This document shows positions 1 to 64,000 of a DNA stretch of 64,000 nt, piece after piece. Numbering within the stretch: position 1 is the stretch's first letter; every line of letters starts with the position of its first letter. Under the pieces are notes generated by a model that was given only the letters and a program-made list of their open reading frames with translations, was not told the DNA's origin and did not search any database. The position numbers and the translations under genes are program-made. The DNA is taken from positions 930,001 through 994,000 of the forward strand of contig CAXIYB010000001.1 of the NCBI GenBank assembly GCA_964036665.1, read 5' to 3'. Source of the stretch: Gordius sp. MW1. Lineage: Eukaryota; Nematomorpha; Gordioida; Gordea; Gordiidae.

Positions 1-906
1 TAAATTTGTGGATATTCTATAAATTTCTCTCTAAATTTGTGGATATTCTATAAATTTCTGTCTAAATTTGTGGATATTCGATAAATTTCTGTCTAAATTT
101 GTTGATTATTTTTAAATTTTTGTCTAAATTTGTGGATATTCTATAAATTTCTGTCTAAATTTTTTGATTCTTTATAAATTTCTCTCTAAATTTGTGGATA
201 TTCTATAAATTTCTGTCTAAATTTGTGGATATTCGATAAATTTCTGTCTAACTTTGTGGATATTCGATAAATTCCTGTCTAAATTTTTTTGATTATTTTT
301 AAATTTCTCTCTAAATTTGTGGATATTCTATAAATTTCTCTCTAAATTTGTGGTTTTTTTATAAATTTCTGTATAAATTTTTTGATTATTTTTAATTTTT
401 GTCTAAATTTGTGGATATTCTATAAATTTCTGTCTAAATTTTTTGATTCTTTATAAATTTCTCTCTAAATTTGACAATATTCTATAAATTTCTGTCTAAA
501 TTTGTGGATATTCGATAAATTTCTGTCTAAATTTGTGGATATTCGATAAATTTCTGTCTAAATTTTTTGATTATTTTTAAATTTTTGTCTAAATTTGTGG
601 ATATTCTATAAATTTCTGTCGAAATTTGTGGATATTCGATAAAGTTCTGTCTAAATTTGTGGATATTCTATAAATTTCTCTCTAAATTTGTGGATATTCT
701 ATAAATTCTGTCTAAATTTGTGGATATTCGATAAATTTCTGTCTAAATTTTTTGATTATTTTTAAATTTTTGTCTAAATTTGTGGATATTCTATAAATTT
801 CTGTCTAAATATTTTGATTCTTTAGAAATTTCTCTCTAAATTTGTGGATATTCTATAAATTTCTGTCTAAATTTGTGGATATTAGATAAATTTCTGTCTA
901 AATTTT
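1..906. repeat. 31-bp minisatellite array A0 (left-truncated)
   Basis: Tandem 31-bp monomers entering from beyond the window's left edge. Each has two AAATTT cores spaced 19 and 12 bp. Three main monomer families alternate: one with GTGGATATTC after the first core, one with TTGATTATTTTT, and one with TTGATTCTTTA. Ordered private variants are TAACTTTG (249), ATTCCTGTC (271), GTATAAA (371), GACAATAT (473), GTCGAAAT (618), a monomer shortened by 1 bp near 700, and TTAGAAATTT near 822. The same order precedes most other islands, so this is the standard 'tail' module. No gene or regulatory site is supported. Confidence 0.95.
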
Positions 907-929
907 TAATATTTCTCTGTTTATTTATA

Positions 930-941
930 AATCCCCCCCCC
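930..941. repeat. Poly-C tract at the left of the island
   Basis: An uninterrupted run of C follows TATAAAT near the left edge of every island. Island 1 has nine. The length varies between copies: 8 in most, 9 in islands 1, 7, 8 and 11, 10 in islands 3 and 21, 11 in island 10. It is the most length-variable site in the otherwise fixed island. Replication slippage explains it; sequencing homopolymer error is the alternative. Confidence 0.85.
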
Positions 942-1217
942 TCACTACGCTACTGGGTAAAACATACGTTCAATTTCACATAATTTTTAATTTTATGACA
1001 ACGCATTTATTCATTGTTTATTTAGTTTCCTCCAATGAATCTTAGAATTTACAATACATCATAATTTTGGCCATATTTTTCAATCAAAGATTTAGTACTT
1101 ACAACCATGGTTTCAGATATACATCGGCAAATTTCAACAAAAAATATGTAATTCTCTTTATAATCAAAAATTATTAACTTAAAAAAAATCTAAATTAAAA
1201 CAAATAATAGATGGCGG

Positions 1218-1225
1218 TATAAAAG
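1218..1225 (+). promoter_or_regulatory. Putative TATA box (TATAAAAG), representative copy
   Basis: TATAAAAG is preceded directly by GGCGG, an unusually GC-rich lead-in for this AT-rich body. It matches the strong eukaryotic TATA consensus. All islands carry it unchanged, normally 547-540 bases before the island's right end (1 base less in islands 2, 4, 10 and 14; 3 more in island 15). TCATAT starts 23 bases downstream and is a weak initiator candidate. AATAAA motifs lie at 1273-1278 and 1350-1355. In sequence this AT-rich a chance match is quite possible, and nothing here shows that transcription occurs. Confidence 0.25.
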
Positions 1226-1423
1226 ATTGAACTTAAGACTTCATATAGCTTCGAAATATGATGAAGACGAATAATAAAAGTAAAATTATGTGTAAAATGT
1301 AAAAATAATGATTTATTTATTTGTGTATACCACATTTAAAGATCCATAAAATAAATTTGGCACAATCATTCTTAGCCACCATGAATTAGATATGCAAAAT
1401 ATCCTTATATATAGCTATCTTCT

Positions 1424-1570
1424 ACATATATATGTATGTATACAATGTATTTATGTATGTTGCAATGTATTTATGTATGCAATGTATGTATGTATGTACT
1501 AAGGTATGTATGTACGTATGTAATGTATTTATGTATGTATGCAATGTGTTTATGTATGTATGTATGCATG
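1424..1570. repeat. GTAT-type microsatellite tract, representative copy
   Basis: Imperfect tetranucleotide tract built from GTAT, interrupted by CAATG, TTGCAATG and ACTAAGG. It occupies the same place in every island, and its interruptions are the same in all copies apart from two exceptions. Islands 6 and 15 have an extra 3 bases (TATAATAC), and island 6 also lacks 3 bases (GTATGTAAATGTG). Translated, it gives Tyr/Cys/Met- or His/Thr/Tyr/Ile-rich low-complexity peptides on the two strands; these are not taken as proteins. Confidence 0.9.
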
Positions 1571-1602
1571 TTGGGCGCGGGCCCAAATTTTTATTCACGG
1601 CC
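1518..1602 (+). repeat. Intra-island direct repeat, unit 1 (85 bp), representative
   Basis: Begins ATGTAATGTATTTATG and ends GGGCGCGGGCCC, AAATTTTTATTCACGGCC. It is followed directly by a second unit that lacks 8 bp of GTAT repeat. In islands 2, 4, 10 and 14 this first unit reads TTGTCGCGGG instead of TTGGGCGCGGG (1 bp shorter), which marks a separate island lineage. It contains a GGGCCC palindrome at 1579-1584. The pair probably arose by slippage or unequal exchange within the GTAT tract. Confidence 0.9.
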
Positions 1603-1679
1603 ATGTAATGTATTTATGTATGTATGCAATGTGTTTATGTATGCATGTTGGGCGCGGGCCCAAATTTTTATTCACGGCC
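1603..1679 (+). repeat. Intra-island direct repeat, unit 2 (77 bp), representative
   Basis: Second unit of the tandem pair, identical to the first except for two fewer GTAT steps. It contains a second GGGCCC palindrome at 1656-1661, so each island has two GGGCCC sites 77 bp apart. The rest of the satellite is almost devoid of GC-rich words, so these should be its only sites for an enzyme recognising GGGCCC. I found no copy of this unit carrying the 1-bp-shorter variant seen in unit 1. Confidence 0.9.
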
Positions 1680-1682
1680 CGC
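1654..1682. repeat. GC-rich inverted repeat (7-bp stem, 15-nt loop), representative
   Basis: GCGGGCC at 1654-1660 and its exact reverse complement GGCCCGC at 1676-1682 flank an AT-rich 15-base loop. The stem can form a cruciform in DNA or a hairpin in RNA. It is at the same offset in all islands (111 to 83 bases before the right end). There is no downstream T-run typical of a bacterial terminator, so that reading is not supported. CpG sites concentrate here and in the next 40 bp. Confidence 0.7.
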
Positions 1683-1724
1683 CCACTCACGGTGGTATTA
1701 AAAAAAAATTCACGCCCACTCACG
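1680..1724 (+). repeat. Short direct repeat CGCCCACTCACG, representative pair
   Basis: The 12-mer occurs at 1680-1691 and again at 1713-1724, separated by GTGG, TATT and a nine-A run. TTCACG lies upstream of each copy, so a slightly longer diverged duplication is likely. A CTTCTTCTTCTTCTT run follows, then TTGAAAATCCCACAGACGG at the island edge. The segment is GC-richer than anything else here and looks foreign to the AT-rich array. No family is recognised. Confidence 0.75.
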
Positions 1725-1765
1725 CTTCTTCTTCTTCTTTATCGTGTTGAAAATCCCACAGACGG

Positions 1766-3469
1766 TTGATATTCGATAAATTTCTGTCTAAATTTTTTGA
1801 TTATTTTTAAATTTTTGTCTAAATTTGTCGATATTCGATAAATTTCTGTCTAAATTTTTTGATTATTTTTAAATTTTTGTCTAAATTGGTGGATATTCTA
1901 TAAATTTCTGTCTAAATTTTTTGATTATTTTTATATTTTTGTGTAAATTTGTGGATATTCTATAAATTTCTGTCTAAATTTTTTGATTATTTTTAATTTT
2001 TGTCTAAATTTGTGTATATTCTATAAATTTCTGTCTAAATTTTTTGATTCTTTATTTCTCTCTAAATTTGAAAATATTCTATAAATTTCTGTCTAAATTT
2101 GTGGATATTCCATAAATTTTTGTCTGAATTTTTTGATTATTTTTAAATTTTGGTCTAAATTTGTGGATATTCTATAAATTTCTGTCTAAATTTGTGGATA
2201 TTCTATAAATTTCTGTCTAAATTTGTGGATATTCGATAAAGTTCTGTCTAAATTTGTGGATATTCTATAAATTTCTCTCTAAATTTGTGGATATTCTATA
2301 AATTTCTGTTTAAATTTGTGGATATTCGATAAATTTCTGTCTAAATTTTTTGATTATTTTTAAATTTCTCTCTAAATTTGTGGATATTCTATAAATTTCT
2401 CTCTAAATTTGTGGATATTCTATAAATTTCTGTCTAAATTTGTGGATATTCGATAAATTTCTGTCTAAATTTGTTGATTATTTTTAAATTTTTGTCTAAA
2501 TTTGTGTATTCTATAAATTTCTGTCTAAATTTTTTGATTCTTCATAAATTTCTCTCTAAATTTGTGGATATTCTATAAATTTCTGTCTAAATTTGTGGAT
2601 ATTCGATAAATTTCTGTCTAACTTTGTGGATATTCGATAAATTTCTGTCTAAATTTTTTTGATTATTTTTAAATTTCTCTCTAAATTTGTGGATATTCTA
2701 TAAATTTCTCTCTAAATTTGTGGTTTTTTTTATAAATTTCTGTCTAAATTTTTTGATTATTTTTAATTTTGTCTAAATTTGTGGATATTCTATAAATTTC
2801 TGTCTAAATTTTTTGATTCTTTATAAATTTCTCTCTAAATTTGACAATATTCTATAAATTTCTGTCTAAATTTGTGGATATTCGATAAATTTCTGTCTAA
2901 ATTTGTGGATATTCGATAAATTTCTGTCTAAATTTTTTGATTATTTTTAAATTTTTGTCTAAATTTGTGGAAATTCTATAAATTTCTGTCGAAATTTGTG
3001 GATATTCGATAAAGTTCTGTCTAAATTTGTGGATATTCTATAAATTTCTCTCTAAATTTGTGGATATTCTATAAATTCTGTCTAAATTTGTGGATATTCG
3101 ATAAATTTCTGTCTAAATTTTTTGAATTTGTGGATATTCTATAAATTTCTTTCTAAATTGTTTGATTCTTTGTAAATTTCTGTCTAAATTTGTGGATATT
3201 CTATAAATTTCTGTCTAAATTTTTTGATTTTATAAATTTCTCTCTAAATTTGTGGATATTCTATAAATTTCTGTCTAAATTTGTGGATATTCGATAAATT
3301 TCTGTCTAAATTTTTTGATTATTTTTAAATTTTTGTCTAAATTTGTGGATATTCTATAAATTTCTGTCTAAATATTTTGATTCTTTAGAAATTTCTCTCT
3401 AAATTTGTGGATATTCTATAAATTTCTGTCTAAATTTGTGGATATTAGATAAATTTCTGTCTAAATTTT
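1766..3469. repeat. 31-bp minisatellite array A1 (1,704 bp, lineage a)
   Basis: Starts in mid-monomer with TTGATATTCGATAAA, then GTCGATATTCG and GGTGGATATTC monomers. Marker variants in order are GTTTAAATTT (2308), a 2-bp-short GTGTATTC (2505), an eight-T GTGGTTTTTTTT near 2722, GTGGAAATTC (2968), and a fused monomer TTGAATTTG at 3121-3130. It equals the 1,726-bp arrays after islands 9, 11, 12 and 13 except for a 22-bp loss at the fused monomer, and lacks their TGATCATTTTT variant. No gene seen. Confidence 0.95.
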
Positions 3470-4326
3470 TAATATTTCTCTGTTTATCTATAAATCCCCC
3501 CCCTCACTACGCTACTGGGTAAAACATACGTTCAATTTCACATAATTTTTAATTTTATGACAACGCATTTATTCATTGTTTTTTTAGTTTCCTCCAATGA
3601 ATCTTAGAATTTACAATACATCATAATTTTGGCCATATTTTTCAATCAAAGATTTAGTACTTACAACCATGGTTTCAGATATACATCGGCAAATTTCAAC
3701 AAAAAATATGTAATTCTCTTTATAATCAAAAATTATTAACTTAAAAAAAATCTAAATTAAAACAAATAATAGATGGCGGTATAAAAGATTGAACTTAAGA
3801 CTTCATATAGCTTCGAAATATGATGAAGACGAATAATAAAAGTAAAATTATGTGTAAAATGTAAAAATAATGATTTATTTATTTGTGTATACCACATTTA
3901 AAGATCCATAAAATAAATTTGGCACAATCATTCTTAGCCACCATGAATTAGATATGCAAAATATCCTTATATATAGCTATCTTCTACATATATATGTATG
4001 TATACAATGTATTTATGTATGTTGCAATGTATTTATGTATGCAATGTATGTATGTATGTACTAAGGTATGTATGTACGTATGTAATGTATTTATGTATGT
4101 ATGCAATGTGTTTATGTATGTATGTATGCATGTTGTCGCGGGCCCAAATTTTTATTCACGGCCATGTAATGTATTTATGTATGTATGCAATGTGTTTATG
4201 TATGCATGTTGGGCGCGGGCCCAAATTTTTATTCACGGCCCGCCCACTCACGGTGGTATTAAAAAAAAATTCACGCCCACTCACGCTTCTTCTTCTTCTT
4301 TATCGTGTTGAAAATCCCACAGACGG
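3470..4326 (+). repeat. Satellite island 2 (857 bp, lineage b)
   Basis: Full-length island with C8. Carries the lineage-b mark TTGTCGCGGG in the first direct-repeat unit, which shortens it by 1 bp and shifts reading frames through the GTAT tract without any sign of selection. TATAAAAG lies at 3780-3787. Shares its class with islands 4, 10 and 14. Confidence 0.95.
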
Positions 4327-5462
4327 TTGATATTCGATAAATTTCTGTCTAAATTTTTTGATTATTTTTAAATTTTTGTCTAAATTTGTTGATATTCGAT
4401 AAATTTCTGTCTAAATTTTTTGATTATTTTTAAATTTTTGTCTAAATTGGTGGATATTCTATAAATTTCTGTCTAAATTTTTTGATTATTTTTATATTTT
4501 TGTGTAAATTTGTGGATATTCTATAAATTTCTGTCTAAATTTTTTGATTATTTTTAATTTTTGTCTAAATTTGTGTATATTCTATAAATTTCTGTCTAAA
4601 TTTTTTGATTCTTTATTTCTCTCTAAATTTGAAAATATTCTATAAATTTCTGTCAAAATTTGTGGATATTCCATAAATTTCTGTCTGAATTTTTTGATTA
4701 TTTTTAAATTTTTGTCTAAATTTGTGGATATTCTATAAATTTCTGTCTAAATTTTTTGATTATTTTTAAATTTCTCTCTAAATTTGTGGATATTCTATAA
4801 ATTTCTCTCTAAATTTGTGGATATTCTATAAATTTCTGTCTAAATTTGTGGATATTCGATAAATTTCTGTCTAAATATGTTGATTATTTTTAAATTTTTG
4901 TCTAAATTTGTGGATATTCTATAAATTTCTGTCTAAATTTTTTGATTCTTTATAAATTTCTCTCTAAATTTGTGGATATTCTATAAATTTCTGTCTAAAT
5001 TTGTGGATATTCGATAAATTTCTGTCTAACTTTGTGGATATTCGATAAATTTCTGTCTAAATTTTTTTGATTATTTTTAAATTTGTCTCTAAATTTGTGG
5101 ATATTCTATAAATTTCTCTCTAAATTTGTGGTTTTTTTATAAATTTCTGTCTAAATTTTTTGATTATTTTTAATTTTGTCTAAATTTGTGGATATTCTAT
5201 AAATTTCTGTCTAAATTTTTTGATTCTTTATAAATTTCTCTCTAAATTTGACAATATTCTATAAATTTCTGTCTAAATTTGTGGATATTCGATAAATTTC
5301 TGTCTAAATTTTTTGATTATTTTTAAATTTTTGTCTAAATTTGTGGATATTCTATAAATTTCTGTCTAAATATTTTGATTCTTTAGAAATTTCTCTCTAA
5401 ATTTGTGGATATTCTAAAAATTTCTGTTTTGTGGATATTAGATAAATTTCTGTCTAAATTTT
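4327..5462. repeat. 31-bp minisatellite array A2 (1,136 bp, lineage b)
   Basis: Lineage-b order: GTTGATATTCG (4388), GGTGGATATTC, GTCAAAATTTG (4653), TAAATATGTTG (4874), AATTTGTCTC (5082), then a shortened tail. The last monomers before island 3 carry an A substitution and a deletion (AAAAATTTCTGTTTTGTGG, about 5416-5435). Nearly the same array, 1,133 bp, follows island 10. Both look like a standard array with an internal loss of about 0.6 kb. A 65-codon open frame running from here into island 3 is chance. Confidence 0.95.
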
Positions 5463-6322
5463 TAATATTTCTCTGTTTATCTATAAATCCCCCCCCCCTC
5501 ACTACGCTACTGGGTAAAACATACGTTCAATTTCACATAATTTTTAATTTTATGACAACGCATTTATTCATTGTTTTTTTAGTTTACTCCAATGAATCTT
5601 AGAATTTACAATACATCATAATTTTGGCCATATTTTTCAATCAAAGATTTAGTACTTACAACCATGGTTTCAGATATACATCGGCAAATTTCAACAAAAA
5701 ATATGTAATTCTCTTTATAATCAAAAATTATTAACTTAAAAAAAATCTAAATTAAAACAAATAATAGATGGCGGTATAAAAGATTGAACTTAAGACTTCA
5801 TATAGCTTCGAAATATGATGAAGACGAATAATAAAAGTAAAATTATGTGTAAAATGTAAAAATAATGATTTATTTATTTGTGTATACCACATTTAAAGAT
5901 CCATAAAATAAATTTGGCACAATCATTCTTAGCCACCATGAATTAGATATGCAAAATATCCTTATATATAGCTATCTTCTACATATATATGTATGTATAC
6001 AATGTATTTATGTATGTTGCAATGTATTTATGTATGCAATGTATGTATGTATGTACTAAGGTATGTATGTACGTATGTAATGTATTTATGTATGTATGCA
6101 ATGTGTTTATGTATGTATGTATGCATGTTGGGCGCGGGCCCAAATTTTTATTCACGGCCATGTAATGTATTTATGTATGTATGCAATGTGTTTATGTATG
6201 CATGTTGGGCGCGGGCCCAAATTTTTATTCACGGCCCGCCCACTCACGGTGGTATTAAAAAAAAATTCACGCCCACTCACGCTTCTTCTTCTTCTTTATC
6301 GTGTTGAAAATCCCACAGACGG
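5463..6322 (+). repeat. Satellite island 3 (860 bp)
   Basis: Full-length island with C10. Private substitution TAGTTTACTCC where the others read TAGTTTCCTCC. Its left flank has the same AAAAATTTCTGTTTTGTGG deletion as islands 11 and 21, so these three share a left-flank ancestor. It is followed by a lineage-a array start. Confidence 0.95.
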
Positions 6323-9300
6323 TTGATATTCGATAAATTTCTGTCTAAATTTTTTGATTATTTTTAAATTTTTGTCTAAATTTGTCGATATTCGATAAAT
6401 TTCTGTCTAAATTTTTTGATTATTTTTAAATTTTTGTCTAAATTGGTGGATATTCTATAAATTTCTGTCTAAATTTTTTGATTATTTTTATATTTTTGTG
6501 TAAATTTGTGGATATTCTATAAATTTCTGTCTAAATTTTTTGATCATTTTTAATTTTTGTCTAAATTTGTGTATATTCTATAAATTTCTGTCTAAATTTT
6601 TTGATTCTTTATTTCTCTCTAAATTTGAAAATATTCTATAAATTTCTGTCTAAATTTGTGGATATTCCATAAATTTCTGTCTGAATTTTTTGATTATTTT
6701 TAAATTTTTGTCTAAATTTGTGGATATTCTATAAATTTCTGTCTAAATTTGTGGATATTCTATAAATTTCTGTCTAAATTTGTGGATATTCGATAAAGTT
6801 CTGTCTAAATTTTTTGATTATTTTTAAATTTTTGTCTAAATTTGTGGATATTCTATAAATTTCTCTCTAAAGTTGTGGATATTCTATAAATTTCTGTCTA
6901 AATTTGTGGATATTCGATAAATTTCTGTCTAAATTTTTTGATTATTTTTAAATTTCTGTCTAAATTTGTGGATATTCTATAAATTTCTGTCTAAATTTGT
7001 GGATATTCGATAAATTTCTGTCTAACTTTGTGGATATTTGATAAATTTCTGTCTAAATTTTTTTGATTATTTTTAAATTTCTCTCTAAATTTGTGGATAT
7101 TCTATAAATTTCTCTCTAAATTTGTGGTTTTTTTATAAATTTCTGTCTAAATTTTTTGATTATTTTTAATTTTTGTCTAAATTTGTGGATATTCTATAAA
7201 TTTCTGTCTAAATTTTTTGATTCTTTATAAATTTCTCTCTAAATTTGAGAATATTCTATAAATTTCTGTCTAAATTTGTGGATATTCGATAAATTTCTGT
7301 GTGAATTTTTTGATTATTTTTAAATTTTTGTCTAAATTTGTGGATATTCTATAAATTTCTGTCTAAATATTTTGATTCTTTATAAATTTCTCTCTAAATT
7401 TGTGGATATTCTATAAATTTCTGTCTAAATTTGTATATGTTAGATAAATTTCTGTCTAAATTTTTTGATTATTTTTAAATTTTTGTCTAAATTTGTGGAT
7501 ATTCTATAAATTTCTGACTAAATTTGTGGATATTCGATATATTTTTGTCTAAATTTTTTGATTATTTTTAAATTTTTGTCTAAATTAGTGGATATTCTAT
7601 AAATTTCTGTCTAAATTTTTTGATTATTTTTATATTTTTGTGTAAATTTGTGGATATTCTATAAATTTCTGTCTAAATTTTTTGATTCTTTAAATTTCTG
7701 TCTAAATTTGTGGATATTCTATAAATTTCTGACTAAATTTGTGGATATTCGATAAATTTCTGTCTAAATTTGTGTATATTCGATAAATTTCTGTCTAAAT
7801 TTTTTTGATTATTTTTAAATTTCTCATTAAATTTGTGGATATTCTATAAATTTCTTTCTAAATTTCTGGATATTCTATAAATTTCTATCTAAATTTTTTG
7901 ATTATTTTTAATTTTTGTCTAAATTTGTGTATATTCTATAAATTTCTGTCTAAATTTTTTGATTCTTTATAAATTTCTCTCTAAATTTGAGAATATTCTA
8001 TAAATTTCTGTCTAAATTTGTGGATATTCCATAAATTTCTGTCTGAATTTTTTGATTATTTTTAAATTTTTGTCTAAATTTGTGGATATTCTATAAATTT
8101 CTGTCTAAATTTGTGGATATTCTATAAATTTCTGTCTAAATTTGTGGATATTCGATAAAGTTCTGTCTAAATTTGTGGATATTCTATAAATTTCTCTCTA
8201 AATTTGTGGATATTCTATAAATTTCTGTCTAAATTTGTGGATATTCGATAAATTTCTGTCTAAATTTTTTGATTATTTTTAAATTTCTGTCTAAATTTGT
8301 GGATATTCTATAAATTTCTCTCTAAATTTGAGGATATTCTATAAATTTCTGTCTAAATTTGTGGATATTCGATAAATTTCTGTCTAAATTTGTTGATTAT
8401 TTTTAAATTTTTGTCTAAATTTGTGGACATTCTATAAATTTCTGTCTAAATTTTTTGATTCTTTATAAATTTCTCTCTAAATTTGTGGATATTCTATAAA
8501 TTTCTGTCTAAATTTGTGGATATTCGATAAATTTCTGTCTAACTTTGTGGATATTCGATAAATTTCTGTCTAAATTTTTTTGATTATTTTTAAATTTCTC
8601 TCTAAATTTGTGGATATTCTATAAATTTCTCTCTAAATTTGTGGTTTTTTTTATAAATTTCTGTCTAAATTTTTTGATTATTTTTAATTTTTGTCTAAAT
8701 TTGTGTATATTCTATAAATTTCTGTCTAAATTTTTTGATTCTTTATAAATTTCTCTCTAAATTTGAGAATATTCTATAAATTTCTGTCTAAATTTGTGGA
8801 TATTCCATAAATTTCTGTCTGAATTTTTTGATTATTTTTAAATTTTTGTCTAAATTTGTGGATATTCTATAAATTTCTGTCTAAATTTGTGGATATTCTA
8901 TAAATTTCTGTCTAAATTTGTGGATATTCTATAAATTTCTGTCTAAATTTGTGGATATTCGATAAATTTCTGTCTAAATTTGTGGATATTCCATAAATTT
9001 CTGTCTGAATTTTTTGATTATTTTTAAATTTTTGTCTAAATTTGTGGATATTCTATAAAGTTCTGTCTAAATTTGTGGATATTCTATAAATTTCTCTCTA
9101 AATTTGTGGATATTCTATAAATTTCTGTCTAAATTTGTGGATATTCGATAAATTTCTGTCTAAATTTTTTGATTATTTTTAAATTTCTCTCTAAATTTGT
9201 GGATATTCTATAAATTTCTCTCTAAATTTGTGGATATTCTATAAATTTCTGTCTAAATTTGTGGATATTCGATAAATTTCTGTCTAAATTTGTTGATTAT

Positions 9301-11336
9301 TTTTAAATTTTTGTCTAAATTTGTGGATATTCTATAAATTTCTGTCTAAATTTTTTGATTCTTTATAAATTTCTCTCTAAATTTGTGGATATTCTATAAA
9401 TTTCTGTCTAAATTTGTGGATATTCGATAAATTTCTGTCTAACTTTGTGGATATTCGATAAATTCCTGTCTAAATTTTTTTGATTATTTTTAAATTTCTC
9501 TCTAAATTTGTGGATATTCTATAAATTTCTCTCTAAATTTGTGGTTTTTTTATAAATTTCTGTATAAATTTTTTGATTATTTTTAATTTTTGTCTAAATT
9601 TGTGGATATTCTATAAATTTCTGTCTAAATTTTTTGATTCTTTATAAATTTCTCTCTAAATTTGACAATATTCTATAAATTTCTGTCTAAATTTGTGGAT
9701 ATTCGATAAATTTCTGTCTAAATTTGTGGATATTCGATAAATTTCTGTCTAAATTTTTTGATTATTTTTAAATTTTTGTCTAAATTTGTGGATATTCTAT
9801 AAATTTCTGTCGAAATTTGTGGATATTCGATAAAGTTCTGTCTAAATTTGTGGATATTCTATAAATTTCTCTCTAAATTTGTGGATATTCTATAAATTCT
9901 GTCTAAATTTGTGGATATTCGATAAATTTCTGTCTAAATTTTTTGATTATTTTTAAATTTTTGTCTAAATTTGTGGATATTCTATAAATTTTTGTCTAAA
10001 TTTTTTGATTCTTTGTAAATTTCTGTCTAAATTTGTGGATATTCTATAAATTTCTGTCTAAATTTTTTGATTCTTTATAAATTTCTCTCTAAATTTGTGG
10101 ATATTCTATAAATTTCTGTCTAAATTTGTGGATATTCTATAAATTTCTGTCTAAATTTGTGGATATTCTATAAATTTCTGTCTAAATTTGTGGATATTCG
10201 ATAAATTTCTGTCTAAATTTGTGGATATTCCATAAATTTCTGTCTGAATTTTATGATTATTTTTAAATTTTTGTCTAAATTTGTGGATATTCTATAAAGT
10301 TCTGTCTAAATTTGTGGATATTCTATAAATTTCTGTCTAAATTTGTGGATATTCTATAAATTTCTGTCTAAATTTGTGGATATTCGATAAATTTCTGTCT
10401 AAATTTTTTGATTATTTTTAAATTTCTCTCTAAATTTGTGGATTTTCTATAAATTTCTCTCTAAATTTGTGGATATTCTATAAATTTCTGTCTAAATTTG
10501 TGGATATTCGATAAATTTCTGTCTAAATTTGTTGATTATTTTTAAATTTTTGTCTAAATTTGTGGATATTCTATAAATTTCTGTCTAAATTTTTTGATTC
10601 TTTATAAATTTCTCTCTAAATTTGTGGATATTCTATAAATTTCTGTCTAAATTTGTGGATATTCGATAAATTTCTGTCTAACTTTGTGGATATTCGATAA
10701 ATTCCTGTCTAAATTTTTTTGATTATTTTTAAATTTCTCTCTAAATTTGTGGATATTCTATAAATTTCTCTCTAAATTTGTGGTTTTTTTATAAATTTCT
10801 GTATAAATTTTTTGATTATTTTTAATTTTTGTCTAAATTTGTGGATATTCTATAAATTTCTGTCTAAATTTTTTGATTCTTTATAAATTTCTCTCTAAAT
10901 TTGACAATATTCTATAAATTTCTGTCTAAATTTGTGGATATTCGATAAATTTCTGTCTAAATTTGTGGATATTCGATAAATTTCTGTCTAAATTTTTTGA
11001 TTATTTTTAAATTTTTGTCTAAATTTGTGGATATTCTATAAATTTCTGTCGAAATTTGTGGATATTCGAGAAAGTTCTGTCTAAATTTGTGGATATTCTA
11101 TAAATTTCTCTCTAAATTTGTGGATATTCTATAAATTCTGTCTAAATTTGTGGATATTCGATAAATTTCTGTCTAAATTTTTTGATTATTTTTAAATTTT
11201 TGTCTAAATTTGTGGATATTCTATAAATTTCTGTCTAAATATTTTGATTCTTTAGAAATTTCTCTCTAAATTTGTGGATATTCTATAAATTTCTGTCTAA
11301 ATTTGTGGATATTAGATAAATTTCTGTCTAAATTTT
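6323..11336. repeat. 31-bp minisatellite array A3 (5,014 bp, long module)
   Basis: Starts as lineage a (GTCGATATTCG, GGTGGATATTC, TGATCATTTTT), then enters the long 'L' module: TAACTTTGTGGATATTTG (7023), GTATATGTTAGAT (7433), CTCATTAAATTTG (about 7824), TTTGAGGATATTC (8328), GTGGACATTC (8422). From 6,961 to the end it aligns with 39,190-43,562 at an offset of 32,226-32,229 bp. The tail modules appear twice, 1,239 bp apart (GTGG-T7 at 9541 and 10780). About 160 monomers, with no other insertion and no gene. Confidence 0.95.
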
Positions 11337-12193
11337 TAATATTTCTCTGTTTATCTATAAATCCCCCCCCTCACTACGCTACTGGGTAAAACATACGTTC
11401 AATTTCACATAATTTTTAATTTTATGACAACGCATTTATTCATTGTTTTTTTAGTTTCCTCCAATGAATCTTAGAATTTACAATACATCATAATTTTGGC
11501 CATATTTTTCAATCAAAGATTTAGTACTTACAACCATGGTTTCAGATATACATCGGCAAATTTCAACAAAAAATATGTAATTCTCTTTATAATCAAAAAT
11601 TATTAACTTAAAAAAAATCTAAATTAAAACAAATAATAGATGGCGGTATAAAAGATTGAACTTAAGACTTCATATAGCTTCGAAATATGATGAAGACGAA
11701 TAATAAAAGTAAAATTATGTGTAAAATGTAAAAATAATGATTTATTTATTTGTGTATACCACATTTAAAGATCCATAAAATAAATTTGGCACAATCATTC
11801 TTAGCCACCATGAATTAGATATGCAAAATATCCTTATATATAGCTATCTTCTACATATATATGTATGTATACAATGTATTTATGTATGTTGCAATGTATT
11901 TATGTATGCAATGTATGTATGTATGTACTAAGGTATGTATGTACGTATGTAATGTATTTATGTATGTATGCAATGTGTTTATGTATGTATGTATGCATGT
12001 TGTCGCGGGCCCAAATTTTTATTCACGGCCATGTAATGTATTTATGTATGTATGCAATGTGTTTATGTATGCATGTTGGGCGCGGGCCCAAATTTTTATT
12101 CACGGCCCGCCCACTCACGGTGGTATTAAAAAAAAATTCACGCCCACTCACGCTTCTTCTTCTTCTTTATCGTGTTGAAAATCCCACAGACGG
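11337..12193 (+). repeat. Satellite island 4 (857 bp, lineage b)
   Basis: Full-length island with C8 and the TTGTCGCGGG mark. Its left flank has the standard TTAGAAATTT and ATTAGATAAA tail monomers. It is followed by a b-type array start that switches to c-type (see next entry). Confidence 0.95.
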
Positions 12194-52647: not shown

Positions 52648-53505
52648 TAATATTTCTCTGTTTATTTATAAATCCCCCCCCTCACTACGCTACTGGGTAA
52701 AACATACGTTCAATTTCACATAATTTTTAATTTTATGACAACGCATTTATTCATTGTTTTTTTAGTTTCCTCCAATGAATCTTAGAATTTACAATACATC
52801 ATAATTTTGGCCATATTTTTCAATCAAAGATTTAGTACTTACAACCATGGTTTCAGATATACATCGGCAAATTTCAACAAAAAATATGTAATTCTCTTTA
52901 TAATCAAAAATTATTAACTTAAAAAAAATCTAAATCAAAACAAATAATAGATGGCGGTATAAAAGATTGAACTTAAGACTTCATATAGCTTCGAAATATG
53001 ATGAAGACGAATAATAAAAGTAAAATTATGTGTAAAATGTAAAAATAATGATTTATTTATTTGTGTATACCACATTTAAAGATCCATAAAATAAATTTGG
53101 CACAATCATTCTTAGCCACCATGAATTAGATATGCAAAATATCCTTATATATAGCTATCTTCTACATATATATGTATGTATACAATGTATTTATGTATGT
53201 TGCAATGTATTTATGTATGCAATGTATGTATGTATGTACTAAGGTATGTATGTACGTATGTAATGTATTTATGTATGTATGCAATGTGTTTATGTATGTA
53301 TGTATGCATGTTGGGCGCGGGCCCAAATTTTTATTCACGGCCATGTAATGTATTTATGTATGTATGCAATGTGTTTATGTATGCATGTTGGGCGCGGGCC
53401 CAAATTTTTATTCACGGCCCGCCCACTCACGGTGGTATTAAAAAAAAATTCACGCCCACTCACGCTTCTTCTTCTTCTTTATCGTGTTGAAAATCCCACA
53501 GACGG
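52648..53505 (+). repeat. Satellite island 19 (858 bp)
   Basis: Full-length island with C8 and TTTATTTATAAA. Private CTAAATCAAAAC (others CTAAATTAAAAC). Followed by lineage-c sequence. Confidence 0.95.
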
Positions 53506-55204
53506 TTGATATTCGATAAATTTCTGTCTAAATTTTTTGATTATTTTTAAATTTTTGTCTAAATTTGTTGATATTCTATAAATTTCTGTCTAAATTTTTT
53601 GATTATTTTTATATTTTTGTGTAAATTTGTGGATATTCTATAAATTTCTGTCTAAATTTTTTGATTATTTTTAATTTTTGTCTAAATTTGTGTATATTCT
53701 ATAAATTTCTGTCTAAATTTTTTGATTCTTTATTTCTCTCTAAATTTGAAAATATTCTATAAATTTCTGTCTAAATTTGTGGATATTCCATAAATTTCTG
53801 TCTGAATTTGTGGATATTCTATAAATTTCTGTCTAAATTTGTGGATATTCGATAAATTTCTGTCTAAATTTGTGGATATTCCATAAATTTCTGTCTGAAT
53901 TTTTTGATTATTTTTAAATTTTTGTCTAAATTTGTGGATATTCTATAAAGTTCTGTCTAAATTTGTGGATATTCTATAAATTTCTGTCTAAATTTGTGGA
54001 TATTCTATAAATTTCTCTCTAAATTTGTGGATATTCTATAAATTTCTGTCTAAATTTGTGGATATTAGATAAATTTCTGTCTAAATTTTTTGATTATTTT
54101 TAAATTTTTGTCTAAATTTGTGGATATTCTATAAATTTGTGTCTAAACTTTTTGATTCTTTATAAATTTCTGTCTAAATTTGTGGATATTCTATAAATTT
54201 CTGTCTAAATTTTTTGATTCTTTATAAATTTCTCTCTAAATTTGTGGATATTCTATAAATTTCTGTCTAAATTTTTTGATTATTTTTAAATTTATCTCTA
54301 AATTTGTGGATATTCTATAAATTTCTCTCTAAATTTGTGGATATTCTATAAATTTCTGTCTAAATTTGTGGATATTCGATAAATTTCTGTCTAAATTTGT
54401 TGATTATTTTTAAATTTTTGTCTAAATTTGTGGATATTCTATAAATATCTGTCTAAATTTTTTGATTCTTTATAAATTTCTCTCTAAATTTGTGGATATT
54501 CTATAAATTTCTGTCTAAATTTGTGGATATTCGATAAATTTCTGTCTAACTTTGTGGATATTCGATAAATTCCTGTCTAAATTTTTTTGATTATTTTTAA
54601 ATTTCTCTCTAAATTTGTGGATATTCTATAAATTTCTCTCTAAATTTGTGGTTTTTTTATAAATTTCTGTATAAATTTTTTGATTATTTTTAATTTTTGT
54701 CTAAATTTGTGGATATTCTATAAATTTCTGTCTAAATTTTTTGATTCTTTATAAATTTCTCTCTAAATTTGACAATATTCTATAAATTTCTGTCTAAATT
54801 TGTGGATATTCGATAAATTTCTGTCTAAATTTGTGGATATTCGATAAATTTCTGTCTAAATTTTTTGATTATTTTTAAATTTTTGTCTAAATTTGTGGAT
54901 ATTCTATAAATTTCTGTCGAAATTTGTGGATATTCGATAAAGTTCTGTCTAAATTTGTGGATATTCTATAAATTTCTCTCTAAATTTGTGGATATTCTAT
55001 AAATTCTGTCTAAATTTGTGGATATTCGATAAATTTCTGTCTAAATTTTTTGATTATTTTTAAATTTTTGTCTAAATTTGTGGATATTCTATAAATTTCT
55101 GTCTAAATATTTTGATTCTTTAGAAATTTCTCTCTAAATTTGTGGATATTCTATAAATTTCTGTCTAAATTTGTGGATATTAGATAAATTTCTGTCTAAA
55201 TTTT
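53506..55204. repeat. 31-bp minisatellite array A19 (1,699 bp, lineage c)
   Basis: Lineage-c order with AAATTTATCTC (about 54,290) and ATAAATATCTG (about 54,442) but without CTATTAATTTCTC or TTTTCTGATTATT. It is therefore intermediate between A15 and A16/A17. No gene seen. Confidence 0.95.
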
Positions 55205-56062
55205 TAATATTTCTCTGTTTATCTATAAATCCCCCCCCTCACTACGCTACTGGGTAAAACATACGTTCAATTTCACATAATTTTTAATTTTATGACAACG
55301 CATTTATTCATTGTTTTTTTAGTTTCCTCCAATGAATCTTAGAATTTACAATACATCATAATTTTGGCCATATTTTTCAATCAAAGATTTAGTACTTACA
55401 ACCATGGTTTCAGATATACATCGGCAAATTTCAACAAAAAATATGTAATTCTCTTTATAATCAAAAATTATTAACTTAAAAAAAATCTAAATTAAAACAA
55501 ATAATAGATGGCGGTATAAAAGATTGAACTTAAGACTTCATATAGCTTCGAAATATGATGTAGACGAATAATAAAAGTAAAATTATGTGTAAAATGTAAA
55601 AATAATGATTTATTTATTTGTGTATACCACATTTAAAGATCCATAAAATAAATTTGGCACAATCATTCTTAGCCACCATGAATTAGATATGCAAAATATC
55701 CTTATATATAGCTATCTTCTACATATATATGTATGTATACAATGTATTTATGTATGTTGCAATGTATTTATGTATGCAATGTATGTATGTATGTACTAAG
55801 GTATGTATGTACGTATGTAATGTATTTATGTATGTATGCAATGTGTTTATGTATGTATGTATGCATGTTGGGCGCGGGCCCAAATTTTTATTCACGGCCA
55901 TGTAATGTATTTATGTATGTATGCAATGTGTTTATGTATGCATGTTGGGCGCGGGCCCAAATTTTTATTCACGGCCCGCCCACTCACGGTGGTATTAAAA
56001 AAAAATTCACGCCCACTCACGCTTCTTCTTCTTCTTTATCGTGTTGAAAATCCCACAGACGG
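55205..56062 (+). repeat. Satellite island 20 (858 bp)
   Basis: Full-length island with C8 and GATGTAGACG, shared only with island 18. Followed by a lineage-d start and then the longest array. Confidence 0.95.
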
Positions 56063-59000
56063 TTGATATTCGATAAATTTCTGTCTAAATTTTTTGATTA
56101 TTTTTAAATTTTTGTCTAAATTGGTGGATATTCTATAAATTTCTGTCTAAATTTTTTGATTATTTTTATATTTTTGTGTAAATTTGTGGATATTCTATAA
56201 ATTTCTGTCTAAATTTTTTGATTATTTTTAATTTTTGTCTAAATTTGTGTATATTCTATAAATTTCTGTCTAAATTTGTGGATATTCCATAAATTTCTGT
56301 CTGAATTTTTTGATTATTTTTAAATTTTTGTCTAAATTTGTGGATATTCTATAAATTTCTGTCTAAATTTGTGGATATTCTATAAATTTCTGTCTAAATT
56401 TGTGGATATTCGATAAAGTTCTGTCTAAATTTTTTGATTATTTTTAAATTTTTGTCTAAATTTGTGGATATTCTATAAATTTCTCTCTAAAGTTGTGGAT
56501 ATTCTATAAATTTCTGTCTAAATTTGTGGATATTCGATAAATTTCTGTCTAAATTTTTTGATTATTTTTAAATTTTTGTCTAAATTTGTGGATATTCTAT
56601 AAATTTCTGTCTAAACTTTTTGATTCTTTATAAATTTCTGTCTAAATTTGTGGATATTCTATAAATTTCTGTCTAAATTTGTGGATATTCGATAAATTTC
56701 TGTCTAACTTTGTGGATATTTGATAAATTTCTGTCTAAATTTTTTTGATTATTTTTAAATTTCTCTCTAAATTTGTGGATATTCTATAAATTTCTCTCTA
56801 AATTTGTGGTTTTTTTATAAATTTCTGTCTAAATTTTTTGATTATTTTTAATTTTTGTCTAAATTTGTGGATATTCTATAAATTTCTGTCTAAGTTTTTT
56901 GATTCTTTATAAATTTCTCTCTAAATTTGAGAATATTCTATAAATTTCTGTCTAAATTTGTGGATATTCGATAAATTTCTGTGTGAATTTTTTGATTATT
57001 TTTAAATTTTTGTCTAAATTTGTGGATATTCTATAAATTTCTGTCTAAATATTTTGATTCTTTATAAATTTCTCTCTAAATTTGTGGATATTCTATAAAT
57101 TTCTGTCTAAATTTGTATATGTTAGATAAATTTCTGTCTAAATTTTTTGATTATTTTTAAATTTTTGTCTAAATTTGTGGATATTCTATAAATTTCTGAC
57201 TAAATTTGTGGATATTCGATATATTTTTGTCTACATTTTTTGATTATTTTTAAATTTTTGTCTAAATTAGTGGATATTCTATAAATTTCTGTCTAAATTT
57301 GTATATGTTAGATAAATTTCTGTCTAAATTTTTTGATTATTTTTAAATTTTTGTCTAAATTAGTGGATATTCTATAAATTTCTCTCTAATTTTGTGCATA
57401 TTCTATAAATTTCTGTCTAAATTTTTTGATTATTTTTAATTTTTGTCTAAATTTGTGTATATTCTATAAATTTCTGTCTAAATTTTTTGATTCTTTATAA
57501 ATTTCTCTCTAAATTTGTGGATATTCTATAAATTTCTGTCTAAATTTGTGGATATTCGATAAATTTCTGTCTAAATTTGTGTATATTCGATAAATTTCTG
57601 TCTAAATTTTTTTGATTATTTTTAAATTTCTCATTAAATTTGTGGATATTCTATAAATTTCTCTCTAAATTTCTGGATATTCTATAAATTTCTATCTAAA
57701 TTTTTTGATTATTTTTAATTTTTGTTAAATTTGTGTATATTCTATAAATTTCTGTCTAAATTTTTTGATTCTTTATAAATTTCTCTCTAAATTTGAGAAT
57801 ATTCTATAAATTTCTGTCTAAATTTGTGGATATTCCATAAATTTCTGTCTGAATTTTTTGATTATTTTTAAATTTTTGTCTAAATTTGTGGATATTCTAT
57901 AAATTTCTGTCTAAATTTATGTATTATTTTTATATTTTTGTGTAAATTTGTGGATATTCTATAAATTTCTGTCTAAATTTTTTGATTCTTTAAATTTCTG
58001 TCTAAATTTGTGGATATTCTATAAATTTCTGTCTAAATTTGTGGATATTCGATAAATTTCTGTCTAAATTTGTGTATATTCGATAAATTTCTGTCTAAAT
58101 TTTTTTGATTATTTTTAAATTTCTCATTAAATTTGTGGATATTCTATAAATTTCTATCTAAATTTTTTGATTATTTTTAATTTTTGTCTAAATTTGTGTA
58201 TATTCTATAAATTTCTGTCTAAATTTTTTGATTCTTTATAAATTTCTCTCTAAATTTGAGAATATTCTATAAATTTCTCTCTAAATTTGAGAATATTCCA
58301 TAAATTTCTGTCTGAATTTTTTGATTATTTTTAAATTTTTGTCTAAATTTGTGGATATTCTATAAATTTCTGTCTAAATTTGTGGATATTCTATAAATTT
58401 CTGTCTAAATTTGTGGATATTCGATAAAGTTCTGTCTAAATTTGTGGATATTCTATAAATTTCTCTCTAAATTTGTGGATATTCTATAAATTTCTGTCTA
58501 AATTTGTGGATATTCGATAAATTTCTGTCTAAATTTTTTGATTATTTTTAAATTTCTGTCTAAATTTGTGGATATTCTATAAATTTCTCTCTAAATTTGA
58601 GGATATTCTATAAATTTCTGTCTAAATTTGTGGATATTCGATAAATTTCTGTCTAAATTTGTTGATTATTTTTAAATTTTTGTCTAAATTTGTGGACATT
58701 CTATAAATTTCTGTCTAAATTTTTTGATTCTTTATAAATTTCTCTCTAAATTTGTGGATATTCTATAAATTTCTGTCTAAATTTGTGCATATTGGATAAA
58801 TTTCTGTCTAACTTTGTGGATATTCGATAAATTTCTGTCTAAATTTTTTTGATTATTTTTAAATTTCTCTCTAAATTTGTGGATATTCTATAAATTTCTC
58901 TCTAAATTTGTGGTTTTTTTATAAATTTCTGTCTAAATTTTTTGATTATTTTTAATTTTTGTCTAAATTTGTGTATATTCTATAAATTTCTGTCTAAATT

Positions 59001-59457
59001 TTTTGATTCTTTATAAATTTCTCTCTAAATTTGAGAATATTCTATAAATTTCTGTCTAAATTTGTGGATATTCCATAAATTTCTGTCTGAATTTTTTGAT
59101 TATTTTTAAATTTTTGTCTAAATTTGTGGATATTCTATAAATTTCTGTCTAAATTTGTGGATATTCTATAAATTTCTGTCTAAATTTGTGGATATTCTAT
59201 AAATTTCTGTCTAAATTTGTGGATATTCGATAAATTTCTGTCTAAATTTGTGGATATTCCATAAATTTCTGTCTGAATTTTTTGATTATTTTTAAATTTT
59301 TGTCTAAATTTGTGGATATTCTATAAAGTTCTGTCTAAATTTGTGGATATTCTATAAATTTCTCTCTAAATTTGTGGATATTCTATAAATTTCTGTCTAA
59401 ATTTGTGGATATTCGATAAATTTCTGTCTAAATTTTTTGATTATTTTTAAATTTCTC

Positions 59458-61130: not shown

Positions 61131-62803
61131 TCTAAATTTGTGGATATTCTATAAATTTTTCTCTAAATTTGTGGATATTCTATAAATTTCTGTCTAAATT
61201 TGTGGATATTCGATAAATTTCTGTCTAAATTTGTTGATTATTTTTAAATTTTTGTCTAAATTTGTGGATATTCTATAAATTTCTGTCTAAATTTTTTGAT
61301 TCTTTATAAATTTCTCTCTAAATTTGTGGATATTCTATAAATTTCTGTCTAAATTTGTGGATATTCGATAAATTTCTGTCTAACTTTGTGGATATTCGAT
61401 AAATTCCTGTCTAAATTTTTTTGATTATTTTTAAATTTCTCTCTAAATTTGTGGATATTCTATAAATTTCTGTCTAAATTTTTTGATTATTTTTAAATTT
61501 TTGTCTAAATTTGTGGATATTCTATAAATTTTTGTCTAAATTTTTTGATTCTTTGTAAATTTCTGTCTAAATTTGTGGATATTCTATAAATTTCTGTCTA
61601 AATTTTTTGATTCTTTATAAATTTCTCTCTAAATTTGTGGATATTCTATAAATTTCTGTCTAAATTTGTGGATATTCGATAAATTTCTGTCTAAATTTGT
61701 GGATATTCGATAAATTTCTGTCTAAATTTTTTGATTATTTTTAAATTTTTGTCTAAATTTGTGGATATTCTATAAATTTCTGTCGAAATTTGTGGGTATT
61801 CGATAAAGTTCTGTCTAAATTTGTGGATATTCTATAAATTTCTCTCTAAATTTGTGGATATTCTATAAATTCTGTCTAAATTTGTGGATATTCGATAAAT
61901 TTCTGTCTAAATTTTTTGATTATTTTTAAATTTTTGTCTAAATTTGTGGATATTCTATAAATTTTTGTCTAAATTTTTTGATTCTTTGTAAATTTCTGTC
62001 TAAATTTGTGGATATTCTATAAATTTCTGTCTAAATTTTTTGATTCTTTATAAATTTCTCTCTAAATTTGTGGATATTCTATAAATTTCTGTCTAAATTT
62101 GTGGATATTCTATAAATTTCTGTCTAAATTTGTGGATATTCTATAAATTTCTGTCTAAATTTGAGGATATTCGATAAATTTCTGTCTAAATTTGTGGATA
62201 TTCCATAAATTTCTGTCTGAATTTTTTGATTATTTTTAAATTTTTGTCTAAATTTGTGGATATTCGATAAAGTTCTGTCTAAATTTGTGGATATTCTATA
62301 AATCTCTCTCTAAATTTGTGGATATTCTATAAATTTCTGTCTAAATTTGTGGATATTCGATAAATTTCTGTCTAAATTTTTTGATTATTTTTAAATTTCT
62401 CTCTAAATTTGTGGATATTCTATAAATTTCTCTCTAAATTTGTGGATATTCTATAAATTTCTGTCTAAATTTGTGGATATTCGATAAATTTCTGTCTAAA
62501 TATGTTGATTATTTTTAAATTTTTGTCTAAATTTGTGGATATTCTATAAATTTCTGTCTAAATTTTTTGATTCTTTATAAATTTCTCTCTAAATTTGTGG
62601 ATATTCTATAAATTTCTGTCTAAATTTGTGGATATTCGATAAATTTCTGTCTAACTTTGTGGATATTCGATAAATTTCTGTCTAAATTTTTTTGATTATT
62701 TTTAAATTTCTCTCTAAATTTGTGGATATTCTATAAATTTCTCTCTAAATTTGTGGTTTTTTTATAAATTTCTGTATAAATTTTTTGATTATTTTTAATT
62801 TTG
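61131..62803. repeat. 1,673-bp tandem duplication, copy 2
   Basis: Second copy with the same rare variants at 61,154, 61,792, 62,161, 62,301 and 62,496. No difference was noticed. The rare variants GTGGGTATTCG and AATCTCTCTC occur only in these two copies in this window, which points to a very recent event (or an assembly duplication). Confidence 0.88.
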
Positions 62804-63087
62804 TCTAAATTTGTGGATATTCTATAAATTTCTGTCTAAATTTTTTGATTCTTTATAAATTTCTCTCTAAATTTGACAATATTCTATAAATTTCTGTCTA
62901 AATTTGTGGATATTCGATAAATTTCTGTCTAAATTTTTTGATTATTTTTAAATTTTTGTCTAAATTTGTGGATATTCTATAAATTTCTGTCTAAATATTT
63001 TGATTCTTTAGAAATTTCTCTCTAAATTTGTGGATATTCTAAAAATTTCTGTTTTGTGGATATTAGATAAATTTCTGTCTAAATTTT

Positions 63088-63947
63088 TAATATTTCTCTG
63101 TTTATCTATAAATCCCCCCCCCCTCACTACGCTACTGGGTAAAACATACGTTCAATTTCACATAATTTTTAATTTTATGACAACGCATTTATTCATTGTT
63201 TTTTTAGTTTCCTCCAATGAATCTTAGAATTTACAATACATCATAATTTTGGCCATATTTTTCAATCAAAGATTTAGTACTTACAACCATGGTTTCAGAT
63301 ATACATCGGCAAATTTCAACAAAAAATATGTAATTCTCTTTATAATCAAAAATTATTAACTTAAAAAAAATCTAAATTAAAACAAATAATAGATGGCGGT
63401 ATAAAAGATTGAACTTAAGACTTCATATAGCTTCGAAATATGATGAAGACGAATAATAAAAGTAAAATTATGTGTAAAATGTAAAAATAATGATTTATCT
63501 ATTTGTGTATACCACATTTAAAGATCCATAAAATAAATTTGGCACAATCATTCTTAGCCACCATGAATTAGATATGCAAAATATCCTTATATATAGCTAT
63601 CTTCTACATATATATGTATGTATACAATGTATTTATGTATGTTGCAATGTATTTATGTATGCAATGTATGTATGTATGTACTAAGGTATGTATGTACGTA
63701 TGTAATGTATTTATGTATGTATGCAATGTGTTTATGTATGTATGTATGCATGTTGGGCGCGGGCCCAAATTTTTATTCACGGCCATGTAATGTATTTATG
63801 TATGTATGCAATGTGTTTATGTATGCATGTTGGGCGCGGGCCCAAATTTTTATTCACGGCCCGCCCACTCACGGTGGTATTAAAAAAAAATTCACGCCCA
63901 CTCACGCTTCTTCTTCTTCTTTATCGTGTTGAAAATCCCACAGACGG
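63088..63947 (+). repeat. Satellite island 21 (860 bp)
   Basis: Full-length island with C10. Private TTATCTATTTGTG (others TTATTTATTTGTG, near 63,496). Left flank shares the AAAAATTTCTGTTTTGTGG deletion with islands 3 and 11. Confidence 0.95.
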
Positions 63948-64000
63948 TTGATATTCGATAAATTTCTGTCTAAATTTTTTGATTATTTTTAAATTTTTGT
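63948..64000. repeat. 31-bp minisatellite array A21 (right-truncated)
   Basis: First 53 bases of the array after island 21, starting TTGATATTCGATAAA and then a TTGATTATTTTT monomer. It is cut by the window edge before the lineage-defining site, so its class cannot be assigned. Confidence 0.9.

What the first reader, a model, noticed from the sequence alone, without database searches (positions are those of the whole stretch)
1..64000. Composite satellite: 31-bp minisatellite alternating with an 858-bp island, 21 times in 64 kb
The entire window is a nested repeat: a simple AT-rich minisatellite (about 46 kb) regularly interrupted by a complex, non-minisatellite unit (about 18 kb) in constant orientation. 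Most satellites are one monomer type or simple higher-order repeats; a long unrelated spacer co-amplified with a short minisatellite at a preferred 2.56-2.58 kb period is unusual. I do not recognise either component as a named satellite.
Basis: partly seen in the sequence, partly recalled or inferred. Interest (0 to 1): 0.8.

Follow-up and report, generated by a model that had tools for sequence, protein, structure and literature searches.

The report
Composite satellite capping some chromosome ends
The window is part of a long repeat array that sits near the ends of some chromosomes of an unidentified invertebrate, in which a short AT-rich repeat and an 860-base spacer have been copied together as one unit, much as in the end caps of chimpanzee and gorilla chromosomes.

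Summary
The window (contig C9, 930,001-994,000, of a 211.8 Mb animal genome) holds 21 islands of about 862 bp, 99-100% alike and all on one strand, separated by AT-rich 31-bp repeats. The minisatellite variants stand in a recurring order between islands, so island plus minisatellite is one higher-order unit, with 10 of 20 spacings at 2,557-2,585 bp. Two neighbouring units are identical over 2,584 bp; at least one segment is a clean recombinant.

Genome-wide the island counts 356 copies (capped listing: C1, C4, C8; plus C9 here). On C8 the array directly abuts the TTAGGG telomere. A related subfamily (87 copies, 92-93% alike where best aligned) lies mainly at both ends of contig C7, in mirrored orientation; the one copy read has a short, inverted minisatellite. 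C8 and C9 share an inversion junction and an 8.9 kb stretch with 8 mismatches.

Best reading: a subterminal composite satellite, amplified by unequal exchange inside the minisatellite and spread by exchange between chromosome ends. The closest known system is the 32-bp pCht/StSat-plus-spacer caps of African great apes, which it resembles without being a member. Cap function and methylation were not tested; the species is unknown. I found no earlier description in the searches I made.

The parts
1..64000 (+). part of a type A composite satellite array: 31-bp minisatellite with 21 islands
906..1767 (+). island 1 (reference copy)
3469..4328 (+). island 2
5462..6324 (+). island 3
11336..12195 (+). 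island 4
13861..14721 (+). island 5
16982..17842 (+). island 6
19539..20400 (+). island 7
22779..23640 (+). island 8
24686..25546 (+). island 9
27270..28132 (+). island 10
29263..30124 (+). island 11
31848..32708 (+). island 12
34432..35292 (+). island 13
37016..37875 (+). island 14
43562..44425 (+). island 15
46122..46982 (+). island 16
48679..49539 (+). island 17
51236..52096 (+). island 18
52647..53507 (+). island 19
55204..56064 (+). island 20
63087..63949 (+). island 21
30125..32708 (+). higher-order unit (minisatellite plus island), identical over 2,584 bp to the next unit
   Evidence: 0 substitutions, 0 gaps
32709..35292 (+). higher-order unit identical to the previous one
12196..13860 (+). 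recombinant minisatellite segment: 16 monomers matching segment 4,329-5,461 followed by 37 matching segment 17,843-19,538
   Evidence: two blocks cover all 53 monomers
52097..52646 (+). shortened minisatellite segment (550 bp, 17 monomers) with the usual start and end

Best explanation
It is a subterminal composite satellite. The repeated unit is a higher-order repeat: an ordered run of 31-bp AT-rich monomers (53-55 of them in 11 of 21 segments) plus one 862-bp CpG-richer island. Shown here: units are duplicated in tandem; some minisatellite segments are made of blocks of other segments joined at monomer borders; the same units occur at several contig ends; in the second subfamily the copies at the two ends of contig C7 are in mirrored orientation. 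Inferred: unequal exchange or break-induced copying inside the minisatellite makes tandem copies; end-to-end (ectopic) exchange between chromosome ends spreads and homogenises them; the array acts as a passive heterochromatic cap between telomere and genes.
For: The telomere passes straight into the 31-bp array at C8:8,684; at up to 1 mismatch that junction occurs once in the genome. 356 type A islands: of the 100 places listed, all exact and in contig order, 7 are on C1, 91 on C4 (23.60-24.00 of 24.14 Mb, all +) and 2 on C8, so there are no exact copies on C2, C3, C5, C6 or C7. 87 type B islands, all listed: C7 left 33 of 33 on + (33-275 kb), C7 right 42 of 42 on - (20.73-21.04 Mb), the last about 16 kb from the contig end. 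Junctions between island and minisatellite are the same in 21 of 21 copies apart from poly-C length and a few single-base or upstream variants. Units 11 and 12 are identical over 2,584 bp. Segment 12,196-13,860 is two blocks from two other segments. C8:186,864-178,001 matches C9:993,947-1,002,777 with 8 mismatches and 3 gap openings. 54 complete islands differ by 0.14% on average between C8 and C9, with no fixed difference among 7 informative columns. The C8 inversion junction at 46,745 recurs exactly (31 bases) on C9 at 1,144,121.
Against: A C1 array lies about 6.7 Mb from the nearer contig end, beside a stretch that reads N (assembly gap or withheld), so it may be misplaced or truly interstitial. 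One isolated type B-like copy lies at C8:31.22 Mb. The first 10 kb of C7 hold no telomere, so polarity towards the telomere is assumed for that end. C4 carries both subfamilies and the C8 right end carries 3 type B copies in two orientations, so ends are not cleanly one type each. Of the 20 kb of C8 compared only one stretch of 8.9 kb aligned at length at 97% or more; the other three matches were 738 bp or shorter. C9 is unplaced, so its likeness to C8-left could be allelic rather than exchange between different ends. Only telomere repeat was seen at both ends of C2 and C3 (first 10 kb, last 2 kb), so what lies inside them is unknown. No reads, Hi-C, methylation or FISH data; cap function is untested.
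Confidence: 0.76

Rival explanations
1. The island is a transposable element that repeatedly inserted into a pre-existing minisatellite, so the regular spacing reflects insertion preference.
For: The island's left edge (poly-C followed by TCACTACGCTACTG) looks like a transposon end to me (recalled, not tested). Other elements do sit in the island's microsatellite part: on C9 a hAT-like element and on C8 an element starting TAGTGTTGTAAAAACGGC; that start joined to a TATG-type repeat occurs at 10 places, though the pattern itself required that flank.
Against: Both junctions are essentially the same in 21 of 21 copies and the flanking minisatellite variants recur in the same order, which needs co-amplification. 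The island 3' part occurs 358 times at up to 2 mismatches, about the same as the 356 of the middle part (up to 3 mismatches), and the places listed (100 each, exact) are only on C1, C4 and C8. I saw no target-site duplication at the island borders, but made no systematic search for one.
Confidence: 0.06
2. It is a centromeric or pericentromeric satellite of telocentric chromosomes rather than a subtelomeric one.
For: Large arrays (about 0.4 Mb on C4) near single ends of some contigs fit telocentric centromeres.
Against: Type B lies at both ends of C7. No exact type A island 40-mer lies on C2, C3, C5, C6 or C7, and no exact minisatellite 39-mer on C2 or C3 (the list ends within C4, so later contigs were not seen). 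The array directly abuts the telomere on C8.
Confidence: 0.1
3. C9 is the other haplotype of the C8 left end (a retained haplotig, or a sex-chromosome partner), so the C8/C9 near-identity is ordinary allelism.
For: Same polarity towards the telomere, shared inversion junction, and a rare island variant at matching spacings of 5,551 bp and 6,525-6,526 bp in the same order (other spacings differ: 129,385 against 123,949 and 23,950 against 24,858 bp).
Against: The first 10 kb of C9 are an 11-bp GGACAACGGAC array that holds 469 of the 1,832 distinct 99-mers of the last 2 kb of C8 and none of those of the first 10 kb of C4, which fits C9 being the missing right end of C8. But the same array also lies on C4 at 387-582 kb (capped list), so this is not decisive. 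The C9 hAT-like junction was found only on C9.
Confidence: 0.35
4. The array is in part an assembly artefact, with units multiplied or joined wrongly.
For: Identical tandem units are hard to assemble; the C1 array borders a stretch of N.
Against: The window has no N, units carry distinguishing variants in ordered patterns, and the telomere-array junction is a single continuous sequence.
Confidence: 0.07

Closest known systems
pCht / StSat subterminal heterochromatic caps with SD spacers in chimpanzee, bonobo and gorilla (PMC12758386; outline with abstract, passages, and sections 4 and 8 read)
   Same: A short satellite (32 bp there, 31 bp here) beside telomeres of a subset of chromosome ends, interrupted by an unrelated spacer present in hundreds of copies; higher-order blocks; near-identical caps on different ends taken there as ectopic exchange; some interstitial arrays.
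   Different: Spacers average 32-34 kb there and are 0.86 kb here; spacing is irregular with satellite stretches averaging 341-398 kb there, against units of mostly about 2.6 kb here. Here the one copy read of a second subfamily has the minisatellite inverted. Different animal; no sequence homology tested. Lower spacer methylation is measured there and unknown here.
Satellites grown from tandem repeats inside transposable elements, e.g. dmgsat-7 from DINE-TR1 in Drosophila (PMC9957191; three passages read)
   Same: A short tandem repeat next to non-repetitive DNA expands to a long array; type B, with about 320 bp of minisatellite in the copy read, could be a less expanded state.
   Different: No transposon with defined ends was identified for the island; the spacer was amplified together with the minisatellite.
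Higher-order repeat satellites such as primate alpha satellite (recalled)
   Same: Ordered monomer variants repeated as multi-monomer units of high mutual identity.
   Different: The unit here includes a long unrelated spacer, and the location is subterminal.

Membership tests
subtelomeric (subterminal) satellite | lies next to telomeres of several chromosome ends | tested here: met
   C8 telomere junction; near both ends of C7, the right end of C4 and the right end of C8. Exceptions: C1 array and one solitary copy at C8:31.22 Mb. Only the C8 left junction with telomere was read.
higher-order repeat satellite | multi-monomer units more alike than the monomers within them | tested here: met
   Unit pairs with 0-6 substitutions over about 2.56-2.58 kb within the two main subtypes, against 116 distinct monomers.
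pCht/StSat cap family of apes | 32-bp pCht monomer | tested here: not met
   The period is 31 bp. No alignment to the pCht consensus was made. Not claimed as a member.
pCht/StSat cap family of apes | spacers are pockets of lower CpG methylation | not testable with these tools
   Only base composition: islands 23.3 CpG per kb (observed/expected 1.07), minisatellite 6.6 per kb (0.66).
centromeric satellite | present on every chromosome at the centromere | tested here: not met
   No exact type A island 40-mer on C2, C3, C5, C6, C7 and no type B 40-mer at up to 2 mismatches on C1, C2, C3, C5, C6. Kinetochore binding itself could not be tested.
transposon-derived satellite | terminal repeats, target-site duplication and dispersed single copies | tested here: inconclusive
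   One solitary B-like copy; no target-site duplication seen at the borders, not searched systematically; a poly-G/poly-C inverted repeat flanks the B island.

The most novel reading that the evidence does not exclude
The islands are functional anchors: CpG-richer pockets in AT-rich heterochromatin that promote end-to-end exchange, and both ends of one chromosome share one subfamily in mirrored orientation because the two ends of a chromosome exchange with each other. If so, apes and this invertebrate have independently reached the same cap design (a 31-32 bp satellite with recurring spacers).
Probability: 0.14. Interest if true: 0.65.

Novelty: new member of a known kind. Interest (0 to 1): 0.42.

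Why it matters
It offers an assembled, compact counterpart of the ape subterminal caps, with short units, two subfamilies, a readable junction to a telomere and visible recombinant segments, in a small genome. It could be used to test whether spacers drive exchange between chromosome ends and whether the two ends of one chromosome exchange more often with each other than with other ends.

Tried and rejected
Species: TTAGGG repeats at 13 of the 16 ends of C1-C8 and at the right end of C9; mitochondrial proteins best read with the invertebrate code 5 (AGR as serine at conserved serines, my judgement from recalled motifs), genes on both strands. One bryozoan paper (PMC13326412) was searched for passages. 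The species stays unknown.

Coding or RNA content: the ATG frames of 90 aa or more in the window are 24 frames of 104-110 aa lying in the islands' microsatellite part and what follows it, taken as spurious; no Rfam family reached its gathering score.

C9 placement: tested by shared 11-bp-array words, then by a 60-mer over the genome; inconclusive.

Repeated-insertion origin of the island: disfavoured.

A mistake mended: one search turned 19 C8 loci the wrong way and counted one island twice (55 islands); one search repeats it rightly (54 islands, 7 incomplete matches dropped, one repeat removed) with nearly the same means.

Earlier description: paper searches gave no description of this 31-bp/862-bp repeat; only listings were read except where sections or passages are named. 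Dfam and Repbase were not available.
Full report
What is in the window. The 64 kb lie at C9:930,001-994,000 of a genome of 211,818,799 bases in 12 contigs. Searching with the first island finds 21 islands, 98.96-100% identical, all on the + strand. They total 18,091 bp; the other 45,909 bp are nearly all 31-bp repeats. Spacing ranges from 1,411 to 7,883 bp and 10 of 20 spacings lie at 2,557-2,585 bp. The sequence at both island borders is the same in all 21 copies, apart from poly-C length, a few single-base differences, and an upstream variant shared by three copies.

The minisatellite is ordered. Splitting it against the 31-bp consensus gives 1,465 monomers, 116 distinct, 1,302 of them exactly 31 bp. 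Written as letters, the segments between islands mostly start and end in the same way and share long inner runs. Among the 15 units under 2,700 bp, two subtypes stand out, with 1,696-bp and 1,723-bp minisatellite parts. Within a subtype, units differ by 0-6 substitutions, and units 30,125-32,708 and 32,709-35,292 are identical; between the two subtypes the aligned difference is 138-145 substitutions (the islands differ by at most about 4 bases, so nearly all of it lies in the minisatellite, and part of it is different monomers being aligned to one another). Of 21 segments, seven whole ones and the partial first one match a run of another segment monomer for monomer, and segment 12,196-13,860 is exactly two blocks from two other segments; the longest segments break into many short blocks. 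This is what unequal exchange in register with the 31-bp repeat would leave. Islands are CpG-richer than the minisatellite (23.3 against 6.6 per kb).

Where else it is. A 40-mer of the island, up to 3 mismatches, occurs 356 times (184 forward, 172 reverse; reversed control 0). The tool lists 100 places, exact ones first in contig order: 7 on C1 (21.424-21.447 Mb), 91 on C4 (23.60-24.00 Mb, all +), then 2 on C8; so no exact copy is on C2, C3, C5, C6 or C7, while inexact copies and later contigs were not listed. A 35-mer from the island's other end occurs 358 times at up to 2 mismatches. An exact 39-mer of the minisatellite occurs 7,430 times. At the C8 left end 8,684 bp of CCCTAA repeat run straight into the 31-bp array; that junction occurs once in the genome at up to 1 mismatch. 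On C4, at 24.004-24.005 Mb, there is a diverged island among other DNA.

A second subfamily. That diverged island is 92-93% like the window's over about 330 bases and less alike (about 80%) in the microsatellite part; the island's last part did not align. A 40-mer specific to it occurs 87 times at up to 2 mismatches, all listed: C7 left 33 (all +), C7 right 42 (all -), C4 8 (7 on -, 1 on +), C8 right end 3 (1 on -, 2 on +), and one solitary copy at C8:31.22 Mb. In the one C7 copy read (1,400 bases), the 31-bp repeat beside the island is about 320 bp long and runs in the opposite direction relative to the island, with a poly-G/poly-C inverted repeat between them. The opposite strands at the two ends of C7 mean the same polarity towards the contig ends; the right end carries the telomere, the first 10 kb of the left do not. 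I infer that the two subfamilies differ by an inversion at that hairpin and that the minisatellite expanded in type A; the direction of change is not shown.

C8 and C9. Reading inward from the telomere, C8 has the array in one direction to 46.7 kb, then 3.2 kb of other DNA including a 69-bp G/C-rich repeat, then the array in the other direction. The same junction (31 bases) lies on C9 at 1,144,121. Rare-variant islands have two matching spacings on the two contigs (6,525-6,526 and 5,551 bp) while others differ by up to several kb. An 8,864-bp stretch aligns with 8 mismatches and 3 gap openings; the rest of the 20 kb of C8 compared gave only matches of 738 bp or less at 97% identity. Yet 9,211 of 9,880 121-mers of C8:178-188 kb and 9,697 of C8:188-198 kb occur in the 104 kb of C9 held here; stretches nearer the C8 telomere share fewer (5,271 of 9,880 at 10-20 kb). 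Across 54 complete islands (29 C9, 25 C8; 7 of 62 matches were incomplete and left out, one was a repeat) the mean difference is 0.14% between contigs, 0.10% within C8 and 0.16% within C9, with no fixed difference in 7 informative columns (which replaces). C9 has a telomere on its right and an 11-bp array on its left. It may be the missing right end of C8, the missing left end of C4, or another haplotype of C8-left; words of the 11-bp array favour C8-right, but that array also occurs on C4. C9 has its own inversion junction, at 910.6-913.2 kb, with a hAT-like element between inverted copies of the same island site; its 646-aa frame has only a weak Pfam match, DUF4371, under that family's cut-off, so the hAT label rests on recalled end sequences.

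How it probably works. Shown: co-amplified composite units; recombinant minisatellite segments; tandem identical units; the same units at several contig ends; mirrored orientation at the two ends of C7. Inferred: unequal exchange or break-induced copying within the array, exchange between chromosome ends, and a role as a buffer between telomere and genes. Exchange between ends keeps polarity towards the telomere, as seen on C7; random transposition would not. The mixed orientations on C4, C8 and C9 show that inversions also occur.

What it is like. The subterminal caps of chimpanzee, bonobo and gorilla consist of 32-bp pCht arrays with spacers averaging 32-34 kb in about 413-700 copies per haplotype, with lower methylation in spacers and evidence of ectopic exchange (PMC12758386, abstract, passages and sections 4 and 8). 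The present array is built on the same plan at a smaller scale. Membership is not claimed. I found no earlier description of this repeat in the searches, which cover only the held open-access library.

Noticed in passing
L032 and L041 (contig C12, 14,798 bp): The mitochondrial contig has about 21 copies of an 11-bp repeat (TTACCTTACTA) and many hairpin-like inverted and repeated stretches, some apparently inside or beside coding frames such as nad5, nad6 and cob (gene names recalled from sequence, not searched).
   Followed up: partly
L029, L024, L049 (C9 left, C4 left, C8 right): A second, G/C-rich satellite of 11 bp (GGACAACGGAC) fills these contig ends; one 60-mer of it occurs 914 times in the genome.
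   Followed up: partly
L021, L025, L026: Other chromosome ends carry different satellites next to the telomere: C1 and C5 left share repeats of about 125-158 bp, C6 left has a 342-bp repeat.
   Followed up: no
L039:565-3230 (C9:910,565-913,230): An element with hAT-like ends and one open 646-aa frame sits exactly between two inverted copies of the same island site (CCTTAGTA / TACTAAGG).
   Followed up: partly
L034:7240-8645 (C8:47.2-48.6 kb): A 69-bp repeat with long runs of C and G lies inside the inversion junction.
   Followed up: no
C8:31,220,914-31,220,953: A solitary, diverged copy of the type B island 40-mer far from any end; it may mark the origin of the island.
   Followed up: no
L046 (C5 right end): The TTAGGG run decays into G-rich and then AAGTTA repeats at the very end of the contig, possibly a sequencing or assembly artefact.
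   Followed up: no
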